Part shown: in pieces, positions 1 through 6,859 of the stretch
Numbering within the stretch: position 1 is the stretch's first letter
How the letters are laid out: each line of letters begins with the position of its first letter
NCBI GenBank assembly: GCA_024278555.1
Contig: JAJRSX010000018.1
Span: forward strand, 1-6,859
Length of the DNA stretch: 6,859 nucleotides
From: a bacterium
GTDB taxonomy: Bacteria; CG2-30-53-67; CG2-30-70-394
Reading direction: 5' to 3'
Made by a program: the position numbers and the translations under genes
The notes under the pieces: model-generated
What the model was told of the DNA's origin: nothing
Database searches by the model: none
What the model saw: the letters and a program-made list of their open reading frames with translations, nothing else

Positions 1-121
1 CGGCCACTGTGGGGGCCGGTCCCGCCGCCGCCAGGGGGGAGGCCAGACCCACCCCTGCGACCATCGCCGCCAGGGGGGCGAGCCACCTGCGCCGTCGTAT
101 TTGCGTCGCGCTCCATCTCAT
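1..121 (-). CDS. Exported protein, N-terminal fragment with signal peptide (C-terminus beyond window)
   Basis: Forty codons are visible, from ATG (121-119) to the left edge. The start overlaps the giant gene's stop as ATGA, in the -1 frame. GGAG lies 8 nt upstream, which supports this start. The peptide is a textbook bacterial signal sequence. It has a basic n-region with four consecutive arginines at residues 9-12, then a hydrophobic stretch from W13 to about L30 rich in Ala, Leu, Val and Gly. A likely signal peptidase I site follows A33 (Ala-Ala-Ala before Gly-Pro). The RRRWL stretch loosely resembles a twin-arginine motif, so Tat export is possible, though Sec is the simpler reading. No lipobox cysteine is visible. 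The mature domain lies outside the window, so the function cannot be told. The overlap implies co-expression with the giant protein. Confidence 0.82.
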   Translation of the reverse strand, partial: MRWSATQIRRRRWLAPLAAMVAGVGLASPLAAAGPAPTVA

Positions 122-3100
122 GGCTTCGGCTCCGTCATGACGTTCGCCGGCGTTGCCCCCACCGGCCGGAACTGGTCGTCTTGGCCGGCGCACATCTCGG
201 CGGCGCAGGCGTCGTAGGGGCTCGGCGACCAGCCGCCCCAGGCGCCGGATGCGGTGGTGAGGCCGAGCCCCTGGAACTCCCCCCCCTGGAACGCCATCCC
301 GGCCACCGTGTCGCCCACCCTTGGGAAGTCGCCGAGGCCGAAGTAGAGCCCCTTCGAGCTGAGGGTGATCCAGGCGCCGATGGGCTCCCCGGCCGGGGCG
401 AGATCGAGGACCCCCTTCACCAGGTAGCACGCCCCATCCGCGGGCGCGCACTCCAGGGTGACCATCGTGGAGTCGGGGATCTGGAAGCGGAACTTCATCC
501 CCGCCTCGGCGTCGTCGCCGGCGGCGTTCACGTCGGCGAAGTACTGGGCGTCGATCCGGCCGCCGAGCTGGCCGGTGTCGAAGCCGAGGAAGTATCCGGA
601 GACCCACGGCCTCGCGCAGGCGCCGAGCTGCAGCCCGCCGCCGCCTGCCGGGTCGATCGTCCCGGCCCCCGACTGGCCGAGGTCGAGGCCGAAGGTGAGG
701 CCGGCCACCGGGTTGAAGGGGACCATCAGGGTGGTGGAGGCCTCCACCTTCAATCCGAGGCCGGCGGCGTTCCCCTCCTTGAAGAAGTAGCCGCCGCCGC
801 CGGCCGCGAGGTTCCCCCCCAGGAGGTTGAGGGGGGGCGGCACCACCGGCGCCACCATCTCGCCGCACATCCCGACGTCGAGCCGCCGTGCCAGGGCCTC
901 CGGGGCGAGGGGCTCGCCGCCGGGCCCGGCGGGTAGCGACATGTAGCCCGAGAGGGAGAGGCGCCCGAGGTCGAGCGCCCCGATCCGGGCGTCGGCGTGG
1001 GCCCAGAGGCGGGCGTAGGTGCCCGAGCTCTCGGAGACCCCGAGCCAGCCGTAGAGCTCGGTGTTGGCTCCACCCAACAGGGACTCGGCCAACTGGTTGG
1101 CCGGAATGCTCACCCCGATCGACTCGGTGAGGGCGTCGAGGTCGGGGTAGTTGCCGCCCGCCTGGATCTTCAGGAGCCAGCCGTCGGGGCTCGGCTCGTA
1201 GGTGAGCTGGGTGGCGGTCTTCACCAGGGCCGGGATGGTGAATCGGCCCACCAGCTCCAGGCGCACCCGCTCGTCCACGGGCACCGCCCCACCGGCCGCC
1301 AGGGGCCACCGCCGCCAGACGCCGCCGCCGATGCCGGTGAAGGTCCCGCCGCCGATGGTGTCGGTGAAGACCGATTCGGCCAGCACCTGCTCGGCGCCGA
1401 TCTGGGTCTGGTTGGCCGTGGGGAGCCGGTCCACGAAGCCCACCGCCATGCGCGCCAGGTCGATCACCCCGACCACCGCCTTGGTGGCGTCCTCGGCCAC
1501 GGCGGCGCGCGCGCTCGGGTCGGTGACCACCCGGTTCAGGTTGTTCACCCGGGCGACGGTGTCCTCCCAGAGGCCGTCGTCGGCCAAGTTGGCGAGGACC
1601 GGCACGCCGTTGGCGTCGGCCCCTTCGAGGACCGGCAGGGTCCGGAGATAGCCCCAGGTGGGGTCATCCTTGTGCCAGCTATCCTCCTGATCGGGCAGGA
1701 TCGTCCGCCGCAGATCCCCCAGAGTGCCGAGGATCAGGTTGCGCGCCCCCTTGCCCTGCTCCGCCTTGCACACGTCGGGGGCGAGGAGGAGCGGCTTGCT
1801 GTTGCTGTCGGCGGGGGGCTCGCAGCCCCCGGCGAGGAGGGTCATCGACCTCTTCAGGGCCGGGTCCTCCGCGAGGATCTCCACCACCTTCGTGGCCATG
1901 GGCGGCACCTCGAAGGCGAAGAGGACCGGGTCCTGGATCTGCCCCGCGAGCAGCCCGTAGAGGCCGTGGTAGTCGAGGGCGAACTCGGGGGTGAGCTCGT
2001 CGCCCCACCAGAGGACCTTGAGGACCCGCGAGAAGGTGTGGGGGGTGTCGGCGGCGCTCAGGGACTCCACCGCCCCCACCCCGGCCACCGCGAGGAGCCC
2101 CACGAACTGGTACGGGTCGCTGACCGAGTCGAGATCCTTGAACTGCCGGACGAGATCTCCCAGAGGGGAGGTGGCGACGCCGCCGAGGGTGTCACCGTCA
2201 CAGGTCATGGGGACCTTCGAGAAGAGGTAGTCCACCCCGCCGGCGGCCACGTCGATCAGGAGCTTCGGCGCCTCGTCGGTACCGAGGAGGTCGAGGTTCC
2301 TGGCGACCGCGTCGATGGCGACGAACGGGACCACCAGGGCTCGGGGCGACAGGGCCGGCTGGTTTGTCTGGACGGGGTGGCGGTTGATCACGCAGGCGAG
2401 CTTCGGCACGCCCGTGCTCGCCATGAGGGCCCCTGTGAGGGCGGGCAGCCCCACCTCCGGCCCCTGGGTCAGGGCCTCCTCCTGCGCCTCCACCAGGTCG
2501 ATCGCCCAGTGGGCGAGGTCTCGTCCGAGGGGCATGGGGGAGTCGCTGCCGGCAAAGAGGGCGTCGGAGGAGGCCTTGAGGAAGGCATAGAGGATCGGGT
2601 CCCCCCGATCCTCCAGGTAGTGGAGGGCCGCCCTCGGCGGCACCCACGCGGCGAGACGGATGGCGGAACGGGCCGGCTCCGGCAGGCCGTCGACCGTGGC
2701 CTGGAAATCGTCCTCCTCGACCAGCTCCATCAACAGGCTCACGGCGTTCCTTCCCAGGGTCTCGTCCGGGCCGCCGGCGTGGGCCACGTCCAGGCCGAGG
2801 AGCATCGTCCGCCCCAGAAGTCCCACCCAGAAGTCGCCCCCGCTTGCGATCGGACCGACCGCGAGGCGGAGCACCTGATCCCACTGGACGTCCCCCCCCA
2901 CGGCCATCTCCCGGTACGCGGCGGAGAGGACCACGTCCACACCTCCCCCCAGGAGGACGGCGACGCCGCCGGCCCAGCCGTTCGCCGGGAGGCTCGTCTG
3001 GTCGAGGGCCTCCCGGACCAGCCGGGCGAGCCCCTGCCCCGGGGAGAAGCCCGGCCGCGGCTTCAGCAGGGTGAAGAGGTCGGCGAGGAGCCGCTCGGGG

Positions 3101-6100
3101 GTGAGTCCGGCGGCGATGTCGGCGGCGTTCCAGGCGGCGGGCTGGACGAAGCCGAGGGGGCGGAGGCCCGCCTCGGTGACCACGTACTGCGCCAGCTCCA
3201 GGGCGTAGGCGTCGCGGAACGGGTCGGCCGCCACCCCGCCCGGGTCGGGCAGGTTTCGGGCCAGCCGCAGGGCGAGCCCCCCCTCCGGCCCGAGGCGCTC
3301 CGCTACCGGGCCGAGGGCCTCGGCCACCGCCCGGTAGCGGGCCGTCGGGTCCTCCTTGGCGAACCGCTCCACCGACTCCACCCGGCCGCTATGGGCCGCC
3401 GCCACAATGGCCGGGGCGTCGCCCAGGGCCATGCGGTCGAGGTCGGCGAGGAGGGTCGCCGGGTCGGCATTCACCGCCCGGGCCAGGAGGCTCCCCAGGT
3501 CCACCTGGGTCGCGGCGTAGCGGGTGAGCACCCCCTGGATCTCCCCCTGGACGGTCGCCAGGGGGTCTGGTGCAGCCACCGGGTAGGGCACCGGCAACGC
3601 CCGCACCGCCCCCACCCGCCGGTCGAGGCGCTGGAGCTCCCGGAAGCCGTCCGGGTCGCCCGGGTCGAGCTCGGTCAGCCGGCGGTGTACCCACTCGGCC
3701 GCCTGGATCCGGTGGGCGGCGTCCTTCTCCACCTGGGTCTGGAGGGTGGCTCCCGAACACAGGATGGCGTTGTCACTCGCCCCGGAGGCGAGGGCCGAAG
3801 CCTGCACCCGCTGCCGATCGCGCTCGATCTGACCGTCGCTGTCCCAGCCGAGGAGCTGCGCCTGGGCCTCCAGGTGGAGGGCCTGCTCCAGGTGACTTCG
3901 GAGACACGTCCCCGATGCCGCGCACCCGGCGTTGGCGGCGGACTGCTCGGCGAGGATCGTCCCGATCAAATTCACGGCGTCGCCCTCGTCGGCCTCCGGG
4001 AGGGTTCCCCCGGCGAAGAGGTCGGCCCCGAGCATCTGGGCCGCCGACAGGACCGCCAACAACCCCTCCATTGCCGGTTCGTCGCGGTCCGCGAGCAGCC
4101 GTGCCCGGGCATCACCGTAGGCGGTCCGGAGCACCTCCGCGAGGGCATCGAGGGAGGGGCCGACGTCGAGGCGGGCGCCCTCCCAGCCGAACTGCTGAGC
4201 CACCACCAGGGCCCGAAGGATCTGCTGCACCGCCGGCTGCCACTGGGTGGGGGCTGCCTGAGCGCCCGCCACCGCCGCGGCCACCCGCTGGTCCACCGCC
4301 GCGCCCACGAGGGGGCGCAGCCCCTCGGCGCCGACCGTCTCCAGGAGGTCGAGCCAGAAACCCACCGCGGCCCATTCGCCGGCGGTGGGCTGGGCCGGCA
4401 GGGCCGCGAGGTCGGCCTCGAGCAGGGGGCGCACCAGCTCCGCCACCACGGGCACATGGGCGGCGGGGAGGCCGGCGGCCAGGTCGGAGCCGGCGCCACC
4501 CCACCCGTGGACCACCGCCAGGTCCGCCTCCGCCGCGCCGCCCGTACGTGCGGCCGACACCAGGCGGTTCAGAGGCTCGACCAGTCGAGCCCGCACCCGC
4601 TCGGCCAGGGCGACCTCCCGGGCGGCCAGGTCCACGGGCCGGTCCGCCGCTGTCGCAGGTGGCAGGTGAGACGCCAGGTCGATCAGTTCGCTCACCGCCC
4701 TCGGGTCGGGCAGGCGTCCGATGGCGGCCGCCCAGTAGTTGCGCCACAGGTCGGCCGCCGCGTCCGCCCCGGCGGCACTCCCCACCCCCGCCAGTCGGCC
4801 CTCAAGGTCGGTGGCCGCCCAGTCGCCGAGGCGGGCATCGAGTGCGGTGGCCGCCTCCGCAAAGGGGTCGGATGGAGGGGGCGAGGCCGCCCCGGCGAGG
4901 GGTAGCGCCGCGAAGATCCGGGCTCGATCGGCGAGGACCACCAGGAGCTTGCGCTGCCCCTCCTCCCGCGGGTCGAGGCGTCCGGCCACCCGCAACAGGA
5001 GGCCCGCGGCCCGTTGCCGCGACGAGGGGTCACGGGTCGCCAACTGCTCCAGGATGTACGGCGTGGCCAGGGTGGCGTTCCAGCCGCCGGCCACCGGCGT
5101 GGTGGCCGCCGCGACCACCTCGTCGAGGGCGCGGAATACCCCCGGCGCCTCGGCGCCGAGAAGCTCTGCCTGGGTCGCGAGCCGCAGTGCCTCCTTGAAG
5201 TTCCCCTGGAGGCAGGTGCCCGCCGCGGCGCACCGGGCGTTGTCGGACGCCAGGGTCTCGATCCGCCCCCCCAGGTGGGCGATGACCGCGGCGAGGTCGG
5301 GCTCGCCCGGGAAGGCGGCGACCGGCAGGATCTCCGCCCCAAGCATCTGCGCCGTGGCGAGGACCGAGAGGAGCTCCTGGGCCGCGTGGTCGAAGTCGCC
5401 GCCGTCCAGCCGCTGGCGGGCCTCCGTGTAGGCGCTCTGGAGGAGGGGCACCACGTCGGCGGCTGGGCTCGTGGCCACGGCCGGCAGGGACCACCCGAGG
5501 AGTTGCAGCGCGGTGTGAATCCGCAGGATCGACCGGACCGCCTGGTCCCACGGGAGAGCGCCGCGGGCAAGGGCCGTGATGCGCTCCTGGAGGGCCGCAC
5601 CGATGGCGGCCCGGCTCCGGTCGGCGCCGAGGAGCTCCACCAGGTCGGGCCAGAAGCCGAGGGCCGCGATGTCGACCTCGGATGGATCCGGCGGCAGAGC
5701 GTCGAGGCGCGGCTGGAGGCGCGGCAGGAGCACGTCGTCGACCGTGAAGGGCGCCCAGCCGGGGAGCACCCCTCCCAGGGCGGCCAGCGCCGCCGTCAGG
5801 CCGCGCGCGGCCACCACCTCCGGGTCGGCATCGGACACGGCCGTGGCCGGCCCGAGGCGATCGAGATAGCCGTTGAGGGTAGCGGTGAGTGCCGCCACCC
5901 AACCATCGCGCAAGGCCGAGCGGCGGCCCGCCACGTCGAGGGCGGGGGCGCCCACGGTCGTCTCGACTCCGGTGCCGAGGTGGTGGAGCCGCGCCACCTC
6001 CTGTACCGCCTCGGGCGTCGGAGAGCCGTCGGTGGCCGGGTCGCCCAGGGCGTCCACCGCTGTCTTCCACGCCCCCTCCCAGATACGCGCCACCTTCGTC

Positions 6101-6859
6101 ATAATGGCCTCCTCCACGGCGGCGAGGTCCGACGGTTTTTCCGCCCACACCCCGTCCCACGAGTGGTCGCGTCGTGTGGGGTCGGGCAGGGGGACCTCGG
6201 CGAGGCGGCGGGTGCGGAAGAGGTCGTGGAGGAGGAGGTCGAGGGAGTCCTCGGCCTCCGGGACCGCGACCACGGCCGTGGTCATCTGGGCGACGGCGGC
6301 GGCGCGGCCGGCCTCGCCGTACCGCTCGATGTAGCCGGCGAGGGTCGTGGCAAATGCCCGGTCGACGGAGACGAGATCGAGGCCGCCCGTGCTCACCGCG
6401 AGGTCGGCGGAGACCTTGGCGACCACCCGCTGCGCCAGGTCGATGCCGTCGAACGGTCGGTAGCCGATGTCGGAGAACGGGGCCGGGAGGGGATCGCCCA
6501 CCGCCGGGCAGCCGAGCATCTGGTTGTTCTCCTCCACCCGCAGGGCGGCCCGCACGTCGGCGTCGATGAAGACCCGGTTCCGATCCTGGAGCAGACCGTC
6601 GAGACGGTCATACTCGGCCCGGGTCGCCTGGCACAGGAGGGCAATATCCGACTCGAAGGCGGTGGCCATATTCCCCGCGCCGTAGACGAACTCCGGATCC
6701 ACGACCCCCATCTGGATGAAGGCGTCGAGGGCCAGAAGCCTCGATGCATCGGCGGAACGGCCTGCAGAGTCGGGGGCCGCGATCCGGTCGCGGAGGGCGA
6801 GATAGGTACGGCGCAGGGCGAGCCCCAGGCGCGCCCCCACGCGATCGGCCACCGTGAGC
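118..6859 (-). CDS. Giant repeat protein of unknown function, N-terminus beyond window (at least 2244 aa)
   Basis: I do not recognise a family for this protein. The frame ends at TGA (120-118) and is open to the right edge. The first possible start is GTG at 6852, but codons 5' of it (CTC, ACG) are also open and the protein begins inside a repeat, so the gene is probably 5'-partial. Residues 1-1125 are Ala/Leu-rich and look helical, with repeats of about 436 residues. Residues 1126-1815 are mostly helical with Asp-Pro-aromatic elements. Residues 1830-2244 are Gly/aromatic-rich and beta-patterned. There are 17 cysteines, several closely paired (541/547, 977/983, 1677/1695, 2135/2142, 2216/2221), which fits disulfides outside the cytoplasm (inference). 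I see no transmembrane segment, nucleotide-binding loop or catalytic motif. The stop overlaps the start of the next gene, which encodes an exported protein. A scaffold, surface or envelope role is possible but unproven. The reading frame is near certain; the function is unknown. Confidence 0.93.
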   Translation of the reverse strand, partial: LTVADRVGARLGLALRRTYLALRDRIAAPDSAGRSADASRLLALDAFIQMGVVDPEFVYGAGNMATAFESDIALLCQATRAEYDRLDGLLQDRNRVFIDADVRAALRVEENNQMLGCPAVGDPLPAPFSDIGYRPFDGIDLAQRVVAKVSADLAVSTGGLDLVSVDRAFATTLAGYIERYGEAGRAAAVAQMTTAVVAVPEAEDSLDLLLHDLFRTRRLAEVPLPDPTRRDHSWDGVWAEKPSDLAAVEEAIMTKVARIWEGAWKTAVDALGDPATDGSPTPEAVQEVARLHHLGTGVETTVGAPALDVAGRRSALRDGWVAALTATLNGYLDRLGPATAVSDADPEVVAARGLTAALAALGGVLPGWAPFTVDDVLLPRLQPRLDALPPDPSEVDIAALGFWPDLVELLGADRSRAAIGAALQERITALARGALPWDQAVRSILRIHTALQLLGWSLPAVATSPAADVVPLLQSAYTEARQRLDGGDFDHAAQELLSVLATAQMLGAEILPVAAFPGEPDLAAVIAHLGGRIETLASDNARCAAAGTCLQGNFKEALRLATQAELLGAEAPGVFRALDEVVAAATTPVAGGWNATLATPYILEQLATRDPSSRQRAAGLLLRVAGRLDPREEGQRKLLVVLADRARIFAALPLAGAASPPPSDPFAEAATALDARLGDWAATDLEGRLAGVGSAAGADAAADLWRNYWAAAIGRLPDPRAVSELIDLASHLPPATAADRPVDLAAREVALAERVRARLVEPLNRLVSAARTGGAAEADLAVVHGWGGAGSDLAAGLPAAHVPVVAELVRPLLEADLAALPAQPTAGEWAAVGFWLDLLETVGAEGLRPLVGAAVDQRVAAAVAGAQAAPTQWQPAVQQILRALVVAQQFGWEGARLDVGPSLDALAEVLRTAYGDARARLLADRDEPAMEGLLAVLSAAQMLGADLFAGGTLPEADEGDAVNLIGTILAEQSAANAGCAASGTCLRSHLEQALHLEAQAQLLGWDSDGQIERDRQRVQASALASGASDNAILCSGATLQTQVEKDAAHRIQAAEWVHRRLTELDPGDPDGFRELQRLDRRVGAVRALPVPYPVAAPDPLATVQGEIQGVLTRYAATQVDLGSLLARAVNADPATLLADLDRMALGDAPAIVAAAHSGRVESVERFAKEDPTARYRAVAEALGPVAERLGPEGGLALRLARNLPDPGGVAADPFRDAYALELAQYVVTEAGLRPLGFVQPAAWNAADIAAGLTPERLLADLFTLLKPRPGFSPGQGLARLVREALDQTSLPANGWAGGVAVLLGGGVDVVLSAAYREMAVGGDVQWDQVLRLAVGPIASGGDFWVGLLGRTMLLGLDVAHAGGPDETLGRNAVSLLMELVEEDDFQATVDGLPEPARSAIRLAAWVPPRAALHYLEDRGDPILYAFLKASSDALFAGSDSPMPLGRDLAHWAIDLVEAQEEALTQGPEVGLPALTGALMASTGVPKLACVINRHPVQTNQPALSPRALVVPFVAIDAVARNLDLLGTDEAPKLLIDVAAGGVDYLFSKVPMTCDGDTLGGVATSPLGDLVRQFKDLDSVSDPYQFVGLLAVAGVGAVESLSAADTPHTFSRVLKVLWWGDELTPEFALDYHGLYGLLAGQIQDPVLFAFEVPPMATKVVEILAEDPALKRSMTLLAGGCEPPADSNSKPLLLAPDVCKAEQGKGARNLILGTLGDLRRTILPDQEDSWHKDDPTWGYLRTLPVLEGADANGVPVLANLADDGLWEDTVARVNNLNRVVTDPSARAAVAEDATKAVVGVIDLARMAVGFVDRLPTANQTQIGAEQVLAESVFTDTIGGGTFTGIGGGVWRRWPLAAGGAVPVDERVRLELVGRFTIPALVKTATQLTYEPSPDGWLLKIQAGGNYPDLDALTESIGVSIPANQLAESLLGGANTELYGWLGVSESSGTYARLWAHADARIGALDLGRLSLSGYMSLPAGPGGEPLAPEALARRLDVGMCGEMVAPVVPPPLNLLGGNLAAGGGGYFFKEGNAAGLGLKVEASTTLMVPFNPVAGLTFGLDLGQSGAGTIDPAGGGGLQLGACARPWVSGYFLGFDTGQLGGRIDAQYFADVNAAGDDAEAGMKFRFQIPDSTMVTLECAPADGACYLVKGVLDLAPAGEPIGAWITLSSKGLYFGLGDFPRVGDTVAGMAFQGGEFQGLGLTTASGAWGGWSPSPYDACAAEMCAGQDDQFRPVGATPANVMTEPKP
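121..1365 (-). other. C-terminal glycine/aromatic-rich, beta-patterned region (residues 1830-2244)
   Basis: Composition changes sharply from Ala/Leu helices to Gly, aromatic and alternating polar/hydrophobic residues (for example RVRLELVGRFTI at 1862-1873 and MKFRFQI at 2119-2125). Three hairpin-like elements share a G-[WY]-[FL] start and a small or Gly turn: 1935-1958, 2021-2044 and 2086-2109. Six cysteines (1996, 2079, 2135, 2142, 2216, 2221) fall here. The tail after about 2222 is polar and probably disordered. The last residue is Pro, not a terminal aromatic, which argues against a classical outer-membrane barrel. The family is unknown. Confidence 0.55.
130..133 (-). promoter_or_regulatory. 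Ribosome binding site for the downstream exported-protein gene
   Basis: The minus strand reads GGAG at 133-130, followed by an 8-nt spacer and ATG at 121. This is normal Shine-Dalgarno spacing. It lies inside the last codons of the giant gene and favours the 121 start over a second ATG at 116, whose frame gives an implausible Gly/Pro/Arg-rich peptide. Confidence 0.7.
1873..2601 (-). repeat. Asp-Pro-aromatic repeated elements in the middle region (residues 1418-1660)
   Basis: DPILYAFLKA (1418-1427) and DPVLFAFEVP (1641-1650) are clearly alike. DPYQFVGLLAVAG (1579-1591) is a weaker third copy. Each is followed by a hydrophobic, helix-like stretch. Spacings are 161 and 62 residues, the latter close to the 53-61 residue spacing of the short helical elements in the N-terminal zone. 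This region may therefore be a diverged continuation of the same helical array (inference). Confidence 0.45.
3478..4710 (-). repeat. Protein repeat unit 3 (residues 715-1125)
   Basis: This copy begins at PDPRAV (715). It carries GFWLDLLE (831-838), QWQPAVQQILR (870-880), QQFGW (886-890), AYGDARARL (911-919), AQMLGA (938-943), the Cys motif CAASGTC (977-983), AQLLGW (998-1003), LDP (1062-1064) and RALPVP (1084-1089). A segment at 1024-1058 aligns without gaps to 588-622 of unit 2, and also resembles the Cys-motif element of this same unit (ASDNA at 1025-1029, C1032). The unit fades after about residue 1125, where the repeat region ends. Confidence 0.8.
3904..3924 (-). other. Cys-x5-Cys motif, copy in unit 3 (residues 977-983)
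   Basis: The motif CAASGTC is preceded by NAG and followed by a helix ending AQLLGW. It aligns with residues 541-547 at an offset of 436. The two copies use different codons for the second cysteine (TGC in unit 2, TGT here), so conservation is at protein level and not due to recent DNA copying. Confidence 0.6.
4711..6021 (-). repeat. Protein repeat unit 2 (residues 278-714)
   Basis: This copy runs from PTPEAV (278) to the matching point before PDPRAV (715). Landmarks in order are the GFW-x-DL-[VL]-E helix (399-406), WDQAVRSILR (435-444) ending in QLLGW (450-454), AYTEARQRL (474-482), AQMLGA (501-506), the Cys motif CAAAGTC (541-547), AELLG (562-566), LDP (626-628) and ADRARIFAALPL (641-652). 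Almost all of these recur in unit 3 at an offset of 432-437 residues. The match is at protein level. At DNA level the copies have clearly diverged, so the duplication is old. Confidence 0.8.
5212..5232 (-). other. Cys-x5-Cys motif, copy in unit 2 (residues 541-547)
   Basis: The motif CAAAGTC is encoded here, preceded by Asn-Ala and followed by a helix ending AELLG. The same motif recurs in unit 3. Retention of both cysteines and the GT between them, while flanking residues have drifted, suggests a structural disulfide or a metal/cofactor ligand pair. Which of these applies is inference. Confidence 0.6.
6022..6822 (-). repeat. Protein repeat unit 1, partial (residues 11-277)
   Basis: This is the most diverged copy and lacks the first part of the unit, which would lie beyond the right edge. 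Residues 13-24 (LRRTYLALRDRI) align with the AY-x2-AR-x-RL helix of units 2 and 3 (Y17 with Y475 and Y912). The following FIQMG (45-49) and NQMLG (110-114) match their AQMLG and AELLG/AQLLG helix ends. Residues 207-222 (ending RRLAEVPL) match the element ending FAALPL in unit 2. The Cys-x5-Cys motif is not conserved, and about 28 extra residues lie between the first and last of these landmarks. The homology is judged by eye. Confidence 0.6.

What the first reader, a model, noticed from the sequence alone, without database searches (positions are those of the whole stretch)
3478..6859. Nested helical repeats in a giant uncharacterised protein: about 436-residue units made of about 55-residue elements
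Seen: unit 2 and unit 3 align over their length at an offset of 432-437 residues (GFW at 399/831, AQMLGA at 501/938, Cys motif at 541/977, LDP at 626/1062), and a partial unit 1 precedes them. Within units, helix ends of the form [AQ]-x-[LM]-[LF]-G-[AW] recur: 450-454, 501-506, 562-567; 885-890, 938-943, 998-1003, mostly 53-61 residues apart. Inference: this is a long alpha-solenoid that grew by duplication first of a short helical element and then of a block. I recognise no named repeat family.
Basis: partly seen in the sequence, partly recalled or inferred. Interest (0 to 1): 0.62.

Follow-up and report, generated by a model that had tools for sequence, protein, structure and literature searches.

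The report
Duplicated helical block, giant secreted protein
A roughly 5,070-residue, apparently exported bacterial protein of no known family carries an all-helical block that was duplicated in tandem long ago; a full-length relative in another genome and a conserved outer-membrane gene cluster show it is a real gene family, although what it does is still inferred.

Summary
The core observation holds. On the minus strand, two tandem blocks of about 435 residues (window 4654-5961 and 3334-4653) are 33% identical (hhalign E 2e-33). Inside each block, three consecutive elements of 52-61 residues are homologous to one another (profile P 7e-5, 1e-4, 3e-3). The claimed 'unit 1' is not statistically supported. 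AlphaFold2 models of one block are entirely helical, about eight hairpins averaging 54 residues, with modest confidence (pLDDT 63 and 68).

The window is one whole contig and the gene runs onto a second: the protein is about 5,066 residues with a signal peptide. Another genome has an unbroken 5,143-codon ortholog, 61% identical end to end, with the same duplication. All 23 cysteines of the mature protein are conserved, mostly in close pairs (one CX5C per block), suggesting an exported, disulfide-bonded protein. Related loci keep the gene order outer-membrane barrel, lipoprotein, giant protein; two show a BTAD/TPR regulator upstream.

No Pfam, NCBIfam or PDB family matches the blocks; fold searches return only generic alpha-solenoids. 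Most likely this is the helical arm of a cell-envelope scaffold: a new family of a known kind of architecture. Function is not shown.

The parts
118..6858 (-). C-terminal 2246 residues (plus stop) of a giant protein of about 5066 residues; 5' end continues on contig G000:C209 (L003:1-8760, minus)
   Evidence: collinear 61% identical full-length ortholog in G388:C78
4654..5961 (-). helical block 2 (residues 300-735 of the window frame)
   Evidence: AlphaFold2
3334..4653 (-). helical block 3 (residues 736-1175), tandem copy of block 2; clear similarity ends near residue 1142
5464..5622 (-). block 2, element c (helical hairpin ending QLLGW)
5305..5463 (-). block 2, element d (hairpin ending AQMLGA)
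5137..5304 (-). block 2, element e (hairpin with CX5C in its loop, ending AELLGA)
4153..4326 (-). block 3, element c (ending QQFGW); boundaries approximate
3994..4152 (-). block 3, element d (ending AQMLGA); boundaries approximate
3829..3993 (-). block 3, element e (with CX5C, ending AQLLGW); boundaries approximate
5212..5232 (-). CX5C cysteine pair of block 2 (residues 543, 549), conserved in the ortholog
3904..3924 (-). CX5C cysteine pair of block 3 (residues 979, 985), conserved in the ortholog
2..121 (-). start of the next gene (MRWSATQIRRRRWLAPLAAMVAG..., signal-peptide-like), overlapping the giant's stop as ATGA; position-matched in the ortholog by an fn3 protein

Best explanation
The finding is the central helical arm of a Sec-exported, disulfide-bonded giant cell-envelope protein (about 5066 residues). 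The arm contains two tandem 435-residue blocks, each a row of about eight helical hairpins, which arose by an ancient block duplication; three hairpins per block are still recognisably copies of one element of 52-61 residues. The protein is made from a cluster together with an outer-membrane beta-barrel and a lipoprotein whose Ig-like domain is homologous to the giant's own N-terminal domain. I infer that barrel and lipoprotein hold the giant at the outer membrane and that the helical arm is an elongated scaffold or spacer with binding surfaces between the protein's other domains. Shown: duplication, family, gene order, signal-peptide-like N terminus, cysteine conservation. Inferred: solenoid geometry, disulfides, membrane anchoring, scaffold or binding role.
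For: Tandem duplication in two genomes; element homology; all-helical models with the same helix boundaries from 2-row and 4-row alignments; generic alpha-solenoid fold matches; unbroken 5143-codon ortholog, 61% identity with few gaps; hydrophobic signal-like segment at residues 20-38 and no other clear membrane segment; 23 of 23 mature cysteines conserved against 61% overall, mostly in close pairs; barrel-lipoprotein-giant order in four genomes; BiPBP_C-like Ig domain at the N terminus, E 1.6e-4 but below the curated cut-off.
Against: AlphaFold2 confidence is only moderate (pLDDT 63.0 and 67.6; pTM 0.51 and 0.43) and no model of two joined blocks was made, so the superhelix is unproven. Five of about eight hairpins show no sequence repeat. 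No experiment bears on location, partners or function. In the more distant relatives (L021-L023) the contigs end before the helical region, so the arm is known only in two proteins.
Confidence: 0.5

Rival explanations
1. The blocks are two copies of a compact helical domain (a domain duplication), not a continuous solenoid; the three related hairpins are a local feature inside each domain.
For: Only three of about eight hairpins are detectably related; pTM is low; model confidence drops around block residues 282-300 and 386-401, possible domain boundaries.
Against: Hairpins averaging about 54 residues run along the whole block in both models, and many fold matches are to solenoids, which at these scores is weak evidence.
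Confidence: 0.3
2. The protein is a divergent member of a known helical-repeat family (TPR, Sel1-like, HEAT or ARM) that current profiles miss.
For: Fold matches include many HEAT/ARM-type proteins and designed helical repeats; Hcp proteins give a precedent for secreted, disulfide-tied Sel1-like repeats (PMC3851747).
Against: No family reaches its cut-off for any of four block sequences; no PDB sequence relative; the element length of 52-61 residues exceeds 34 (TPR) and 36-38 (Sel1-like) as given in PMC3851747.
Confidence: 0.2
3. It is a secreted toxin or effector delivered by the barrel.
For: Large exported multi-domain protein in a cluster with an outer-membrane barrel.
Against: No toxin or effector domain reached a family cut-off in Pfam; the weak ExoU_mid_dom match has E 0.14, below cut-off. 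The C terminus is somewhat less conserved than the rest but keeps its cysteines and end motif in the ortholog, unlike a swapped toxin tip.
Confidence: 0.07
4. The repeat and the long frame are artefacts of high G+C sequence.
For: Long spurious frames exist on the opposite strand, for example 1302 codons at 997-4905 +.
Against: The frame is intact over 5143 codons in another genome at 61% protein identity, with most differences at third codon positions (0.40 against 0.26 and 0.23).
Confidence: 0.01

Closest known systems
Sel1-like repeat proteins of the Hcp type (HcpB, HcpC; PMC3851747)
   Same: exported bacterial helical-hairpin arrays with cysteines; Hcp repeats are tied by disulfides
   Different: Sel1-like repeats are 36-38 residues and match PF08238; here 52-61 residues, no match; Hcp disulfides link neighbouring repeats while the CX5C here lies in the loop within one hairpin; Hcp proteins are small, this one is about 5066 residues
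HEAT/ARM solenoids (importins, condensin, retromer Vps35, beta-catenin)
   Same: helical-hairpin stacking; generic fold matches
   Different: no profile match above cut-off (HEAT_PBS E 1.9); Foldseek E never below 0.03; VIA Z about 8 or lower, within the range of common arrangements
Huge bacterial surface proteins (PMC11573180, proteins of 5000 or more residues)
   Same: size class; surface proteins are one main bacterial functional group there
   Different: those described by domain carry known domains; this one has none above cut-off and is tied to a barrel-lipoprotein cluster
BiPBP_C Ig-like domain (PF06832)
   Same: N-terminal domain of the giant matches weakly (E 1.6e-4)
   Different: below the curated cut-off; no penicillin-binding protein context

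Membership tests
TPR | profile match to a TPR model | tested here: not met
   no TPR model among hits for the four block sequences in Pfam or for the whole protein
TPR | 34-residue helical hairpin | tested here: not met
   elements recur at 52-53 and 61 residues; model hairpins average about 54 residues
Sel1-like repeat | profile match to PF08238 | tested here: not met
   not among Pfam hits
Sel1-like repeat | 36-38 residue repeat | tested here: not met
   52-61 residues here; length from PMC3851747
HEAT/ARM | profile match above cut-off | tested here: not met
   only HEAT_PBS at E 1.9, 9.7 bits against a cut-off of 20.9, for one member
HEAT/ARM | characteristic fold | tested here: inconclusive
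   many HEAT/ARM chains listed but with low TM-scores and Z about 8 or lower; model confidence moderate
alpha-solenoid (structural class) | consecutive stacked helical hairpins | tested here: inconclusive
   helix order as expected in two models, but pTM 0.51 and 0.43
alpha-solenoid (structural class) | tandem repetition in sequence | tested here: met
   block and element repeats
Sec-exported disulfide-bonded protein | N-terminal signal peptide | tested here: met
   hydrophobic segment 20-38 in the giant, similar N termini in the ortholog, L021, L022 and L023; judged by sequence and hydropathy, no dedicated predictor available
Sec-exported disulfide-bonded protein | disulfide bonds formed | not testable with these tools
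   23 of 23 mature cysteines conserved and mostly in close pairs is indirect

The most novel reading that the evidence does not exclude
The blocks define a new class of extracytoplasmic alpha-solenoid with two levels of repetition (hairpins of about 54 residues in blocks of about 435) and one conserved CX5C per block, serving as the arm of an undescribed outer-membrane system (BTAD/TPR regulator, barrel, lipoprotein, giant protein, fn3 protein).
Probability: 0.3. Interest if true: 0.6.

Novelty: new variant of a known kind. Interest (0 to 1): 0.42.

Why it matters
It adds a protein family without any domain annotation over most of 5,000 residues, with defined repeat boundaries and an intact ortholog, and ties it to a conserved outer-membrane gene cluster in little-known bacteria. 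That turns an orphan reading frame into a testable system, and gives a clear case of two levels of duplication in a large bacterial helical protein.

Tried and rejected
Relatives of the window protein were not found in 98 genomes, of its C-terminal half in 386, nor of the blocks as a profile in 98; the two weak hits there (L008, L010) read antisense to a LanC-like and a CcmF-like gene (identified by eye) and were rejected as noise. No match in viral contigs, plasmids or phages. A genome-contig scan with the window protein found nothing; the scan with the lipoprotein/N-domain alignment opened the family. PDB sequence searches gave only weak, unconvincing hits (AcrIE4-F7 E 0.0017 to residues 1860-1941, dehydroquinate dehydratase E 0.08, Csc2 E 1.1). 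A profile search of the helical half in the genomes of L021, L022 and L024 found no copy; the L021 and L022 contigs end early, so absence is not shown. A link between the barrel and the lipoprotein domain was tested and not found. No viral fold match. Fold families not listed are not thereby excluded. Neighbouring contigs beyond C196 and C209 were sought by end overlap and not found.

Full report
WHAT IS THERE. The window is contig C196 of the source genome in full, and one minus-strand frame (118-6858) fills it, open at its 5' end. The first 100 residues recur at 98% identity at the end of contig C209 (300 bases, 2 differences), where the frame continues for 2920 codons back to an ATG. Together they give about 5066 residues. 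The join is an inference from overlapping contigs that differ slightly, but it is backed by an unbroken 5143-codon frame in another genome (G388:C78) that aligns end to end, 33-5065 against 59-5141, at 60-61% identity. Nucleotide differences fall mostly at third codon positions (0.40 against 0.26 and 0.23). The long opposite-strand frames are by-products of 70-78% G+C.

THE REPEATS. Cutting the protein into pieces and comparing all pairs puts the only strong internal repeat at an offset of 432-437 residues (E 2e-24). Blocks 2 and 3 score 362 against a shuffle maximum of 100 and give hhalign E 2e-33 over 378 columns. The ortholog has both blocks. Block 2 is 61% identical to its ortholog but 32% to block 3, so the duplication is older than the split and the copies have not been homogenised. 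Inside a block, a profile self-comparison peaks at offsets of 53, 114 and 61 residues with scores 27.5, 24.2 and 15.5, the next offset reaching 5.2; 95% of column shuffles stay below 19.0. The four-row profile repeats this with 52, 61 and 113. Since 52 + 61 = 113, these are three consecutive copies of one element. Profile-profile tests give P 7e-5, 1.1e-4 and 3e-3 for the three pairs and 0.028 or worse for all other pairs among eight cut pieces.

STRUCTURE. AlphaFold2 on block 2 with one and three further rows gives the same order of helices and no strands: about eight hairpins averaging about 54 residues. Mean pLDDT is 63.0 and 67.6, pTM 0.51 and 0.43; residues 11-130 average 73-91 per ten in the second model. 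Foldseek finds no PDB match below E 0.03 and lists HEAT/ARM proteins, 14-3-3 proteins and designed helical repeats; VIA-align gives Z of about 8 at best, which the tool's own note calls common for helical models. So 'all-helical hairpin array' is likely, 'regular superhelix' is unproven, and no specific family emerges.

EXPORT AND CYSTEINES. The protein begins with a hydrophobic signal-like segment (residues 20-38) and has no other clear membrane segment. All 23 cysteines after the signal are conserved in the ortholog, against 61% of all residues. Most lie in near pairs (439/451, 516/554, 3363/3369, 3799/3805, 4957/4964, 5038/5043 and others, numbering the joined protein); one, 3854, is odd. 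The pattern fits disulfides in an exported protein, which is inference.

SURROUNDINGS. Before the giant lies a lipoprotein gene (lipobox LAAC) whose domain is about 40% identical to the giant's N-terminal domain, itself a weak BiPBP_C-like Ig domain (E 1.6e-4, below cut-off). Before that is an outer-membrane-barrel-like protein ending in tryptophan. The giant's stop overlaps the next gene's start as ATGA. A scan with the lipoprotein and N-domain found four more loci, three of which (L021, L022, L023) keep barrel, lipoprotein and the start of a giant at 33-40% identity, as does the ortholog's own locus. Upstream in L021 and at the ortholog's locus is a BTAD/TPR regulator; the ortholog's downstream gene is an fn3 protein. 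Contigs L021-L023 end before the helical blocks would be reached, so the blocks are known from two proteins.

HOW IT PROBABLY WORKS. I propose that the giant crosses the inner membrane by Sec, forms disulfides, and is held at the outer membrane by the barrel and the lipoprotein, perhaps through the shared Ig-like domain; the helical blocks would be an extended arm with binding surfaces between the protein's other domains. The family, duplication, gene order and cysteine conservation are shown. Location, partners and role are inferred. Rivals are a pair of compact helical domains and a divergent member of a known repeat family.

NOVELTY. No Pfam or NCBIfam family and no convincing PDB sequence relative covers the blocks. 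TPR and Sel1-like lengths (34 and 36-38 residues; PMC3851747) do not fit 52-61. Helical repeats in large bacterial proteins are a known kind, and proteins of over 5000 residues are well documented (PMC11573180), so I rate this a new variant of a known kind.

Noticed in passing
L003:3661-4260, minus (residues 1501-1700 of the giant): The best-conserved stretch of the whole protein: 96% identity to the ortholog in residues 1501-1600 and 80% in 1601-1700, against 61% overall. It has no family match and may be the functional core.
   Followed up: no
window 1219-1518, minus (joined residues 4601-4700): Second conservation peak, 83% identity to the ortholog.
   Followed up: no
L021 about 13120-13260: The L021 relative changes reading frame here (ORFs 8627-13327 and 12628-15120 both match the giant): an assembly error, a broken gene or a split gene.
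   Followed up: partly
L023 and L027 (both in G388): One genome appears to hold two copies of the cluster: the full-length ortholog on C78 and a roughly 40%-identical copy cut by a contig end on L023 (or L023 is a binning contaminant).
   Followed up: partly
L021:3497-5890 and L026:908-4333: A BTAD/TPR transcriptional regulator upstream of the barrel-lipoprotein-giant cluster in two genomes, suggesting dedicated regulation.
   Followed up: partly
window 6559-6858 against L003:1-300: The two overlapping contigs of the same genome differ at 2 of 300 bases, giving 98% protein identity: strain mixture or assembly error.
   Followed up: yes
L028:4393-9876: Near the ortholog lies a large lipoprotein-like reading frame with right-handed beta-helix and Ig domains.
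   Followed up: no
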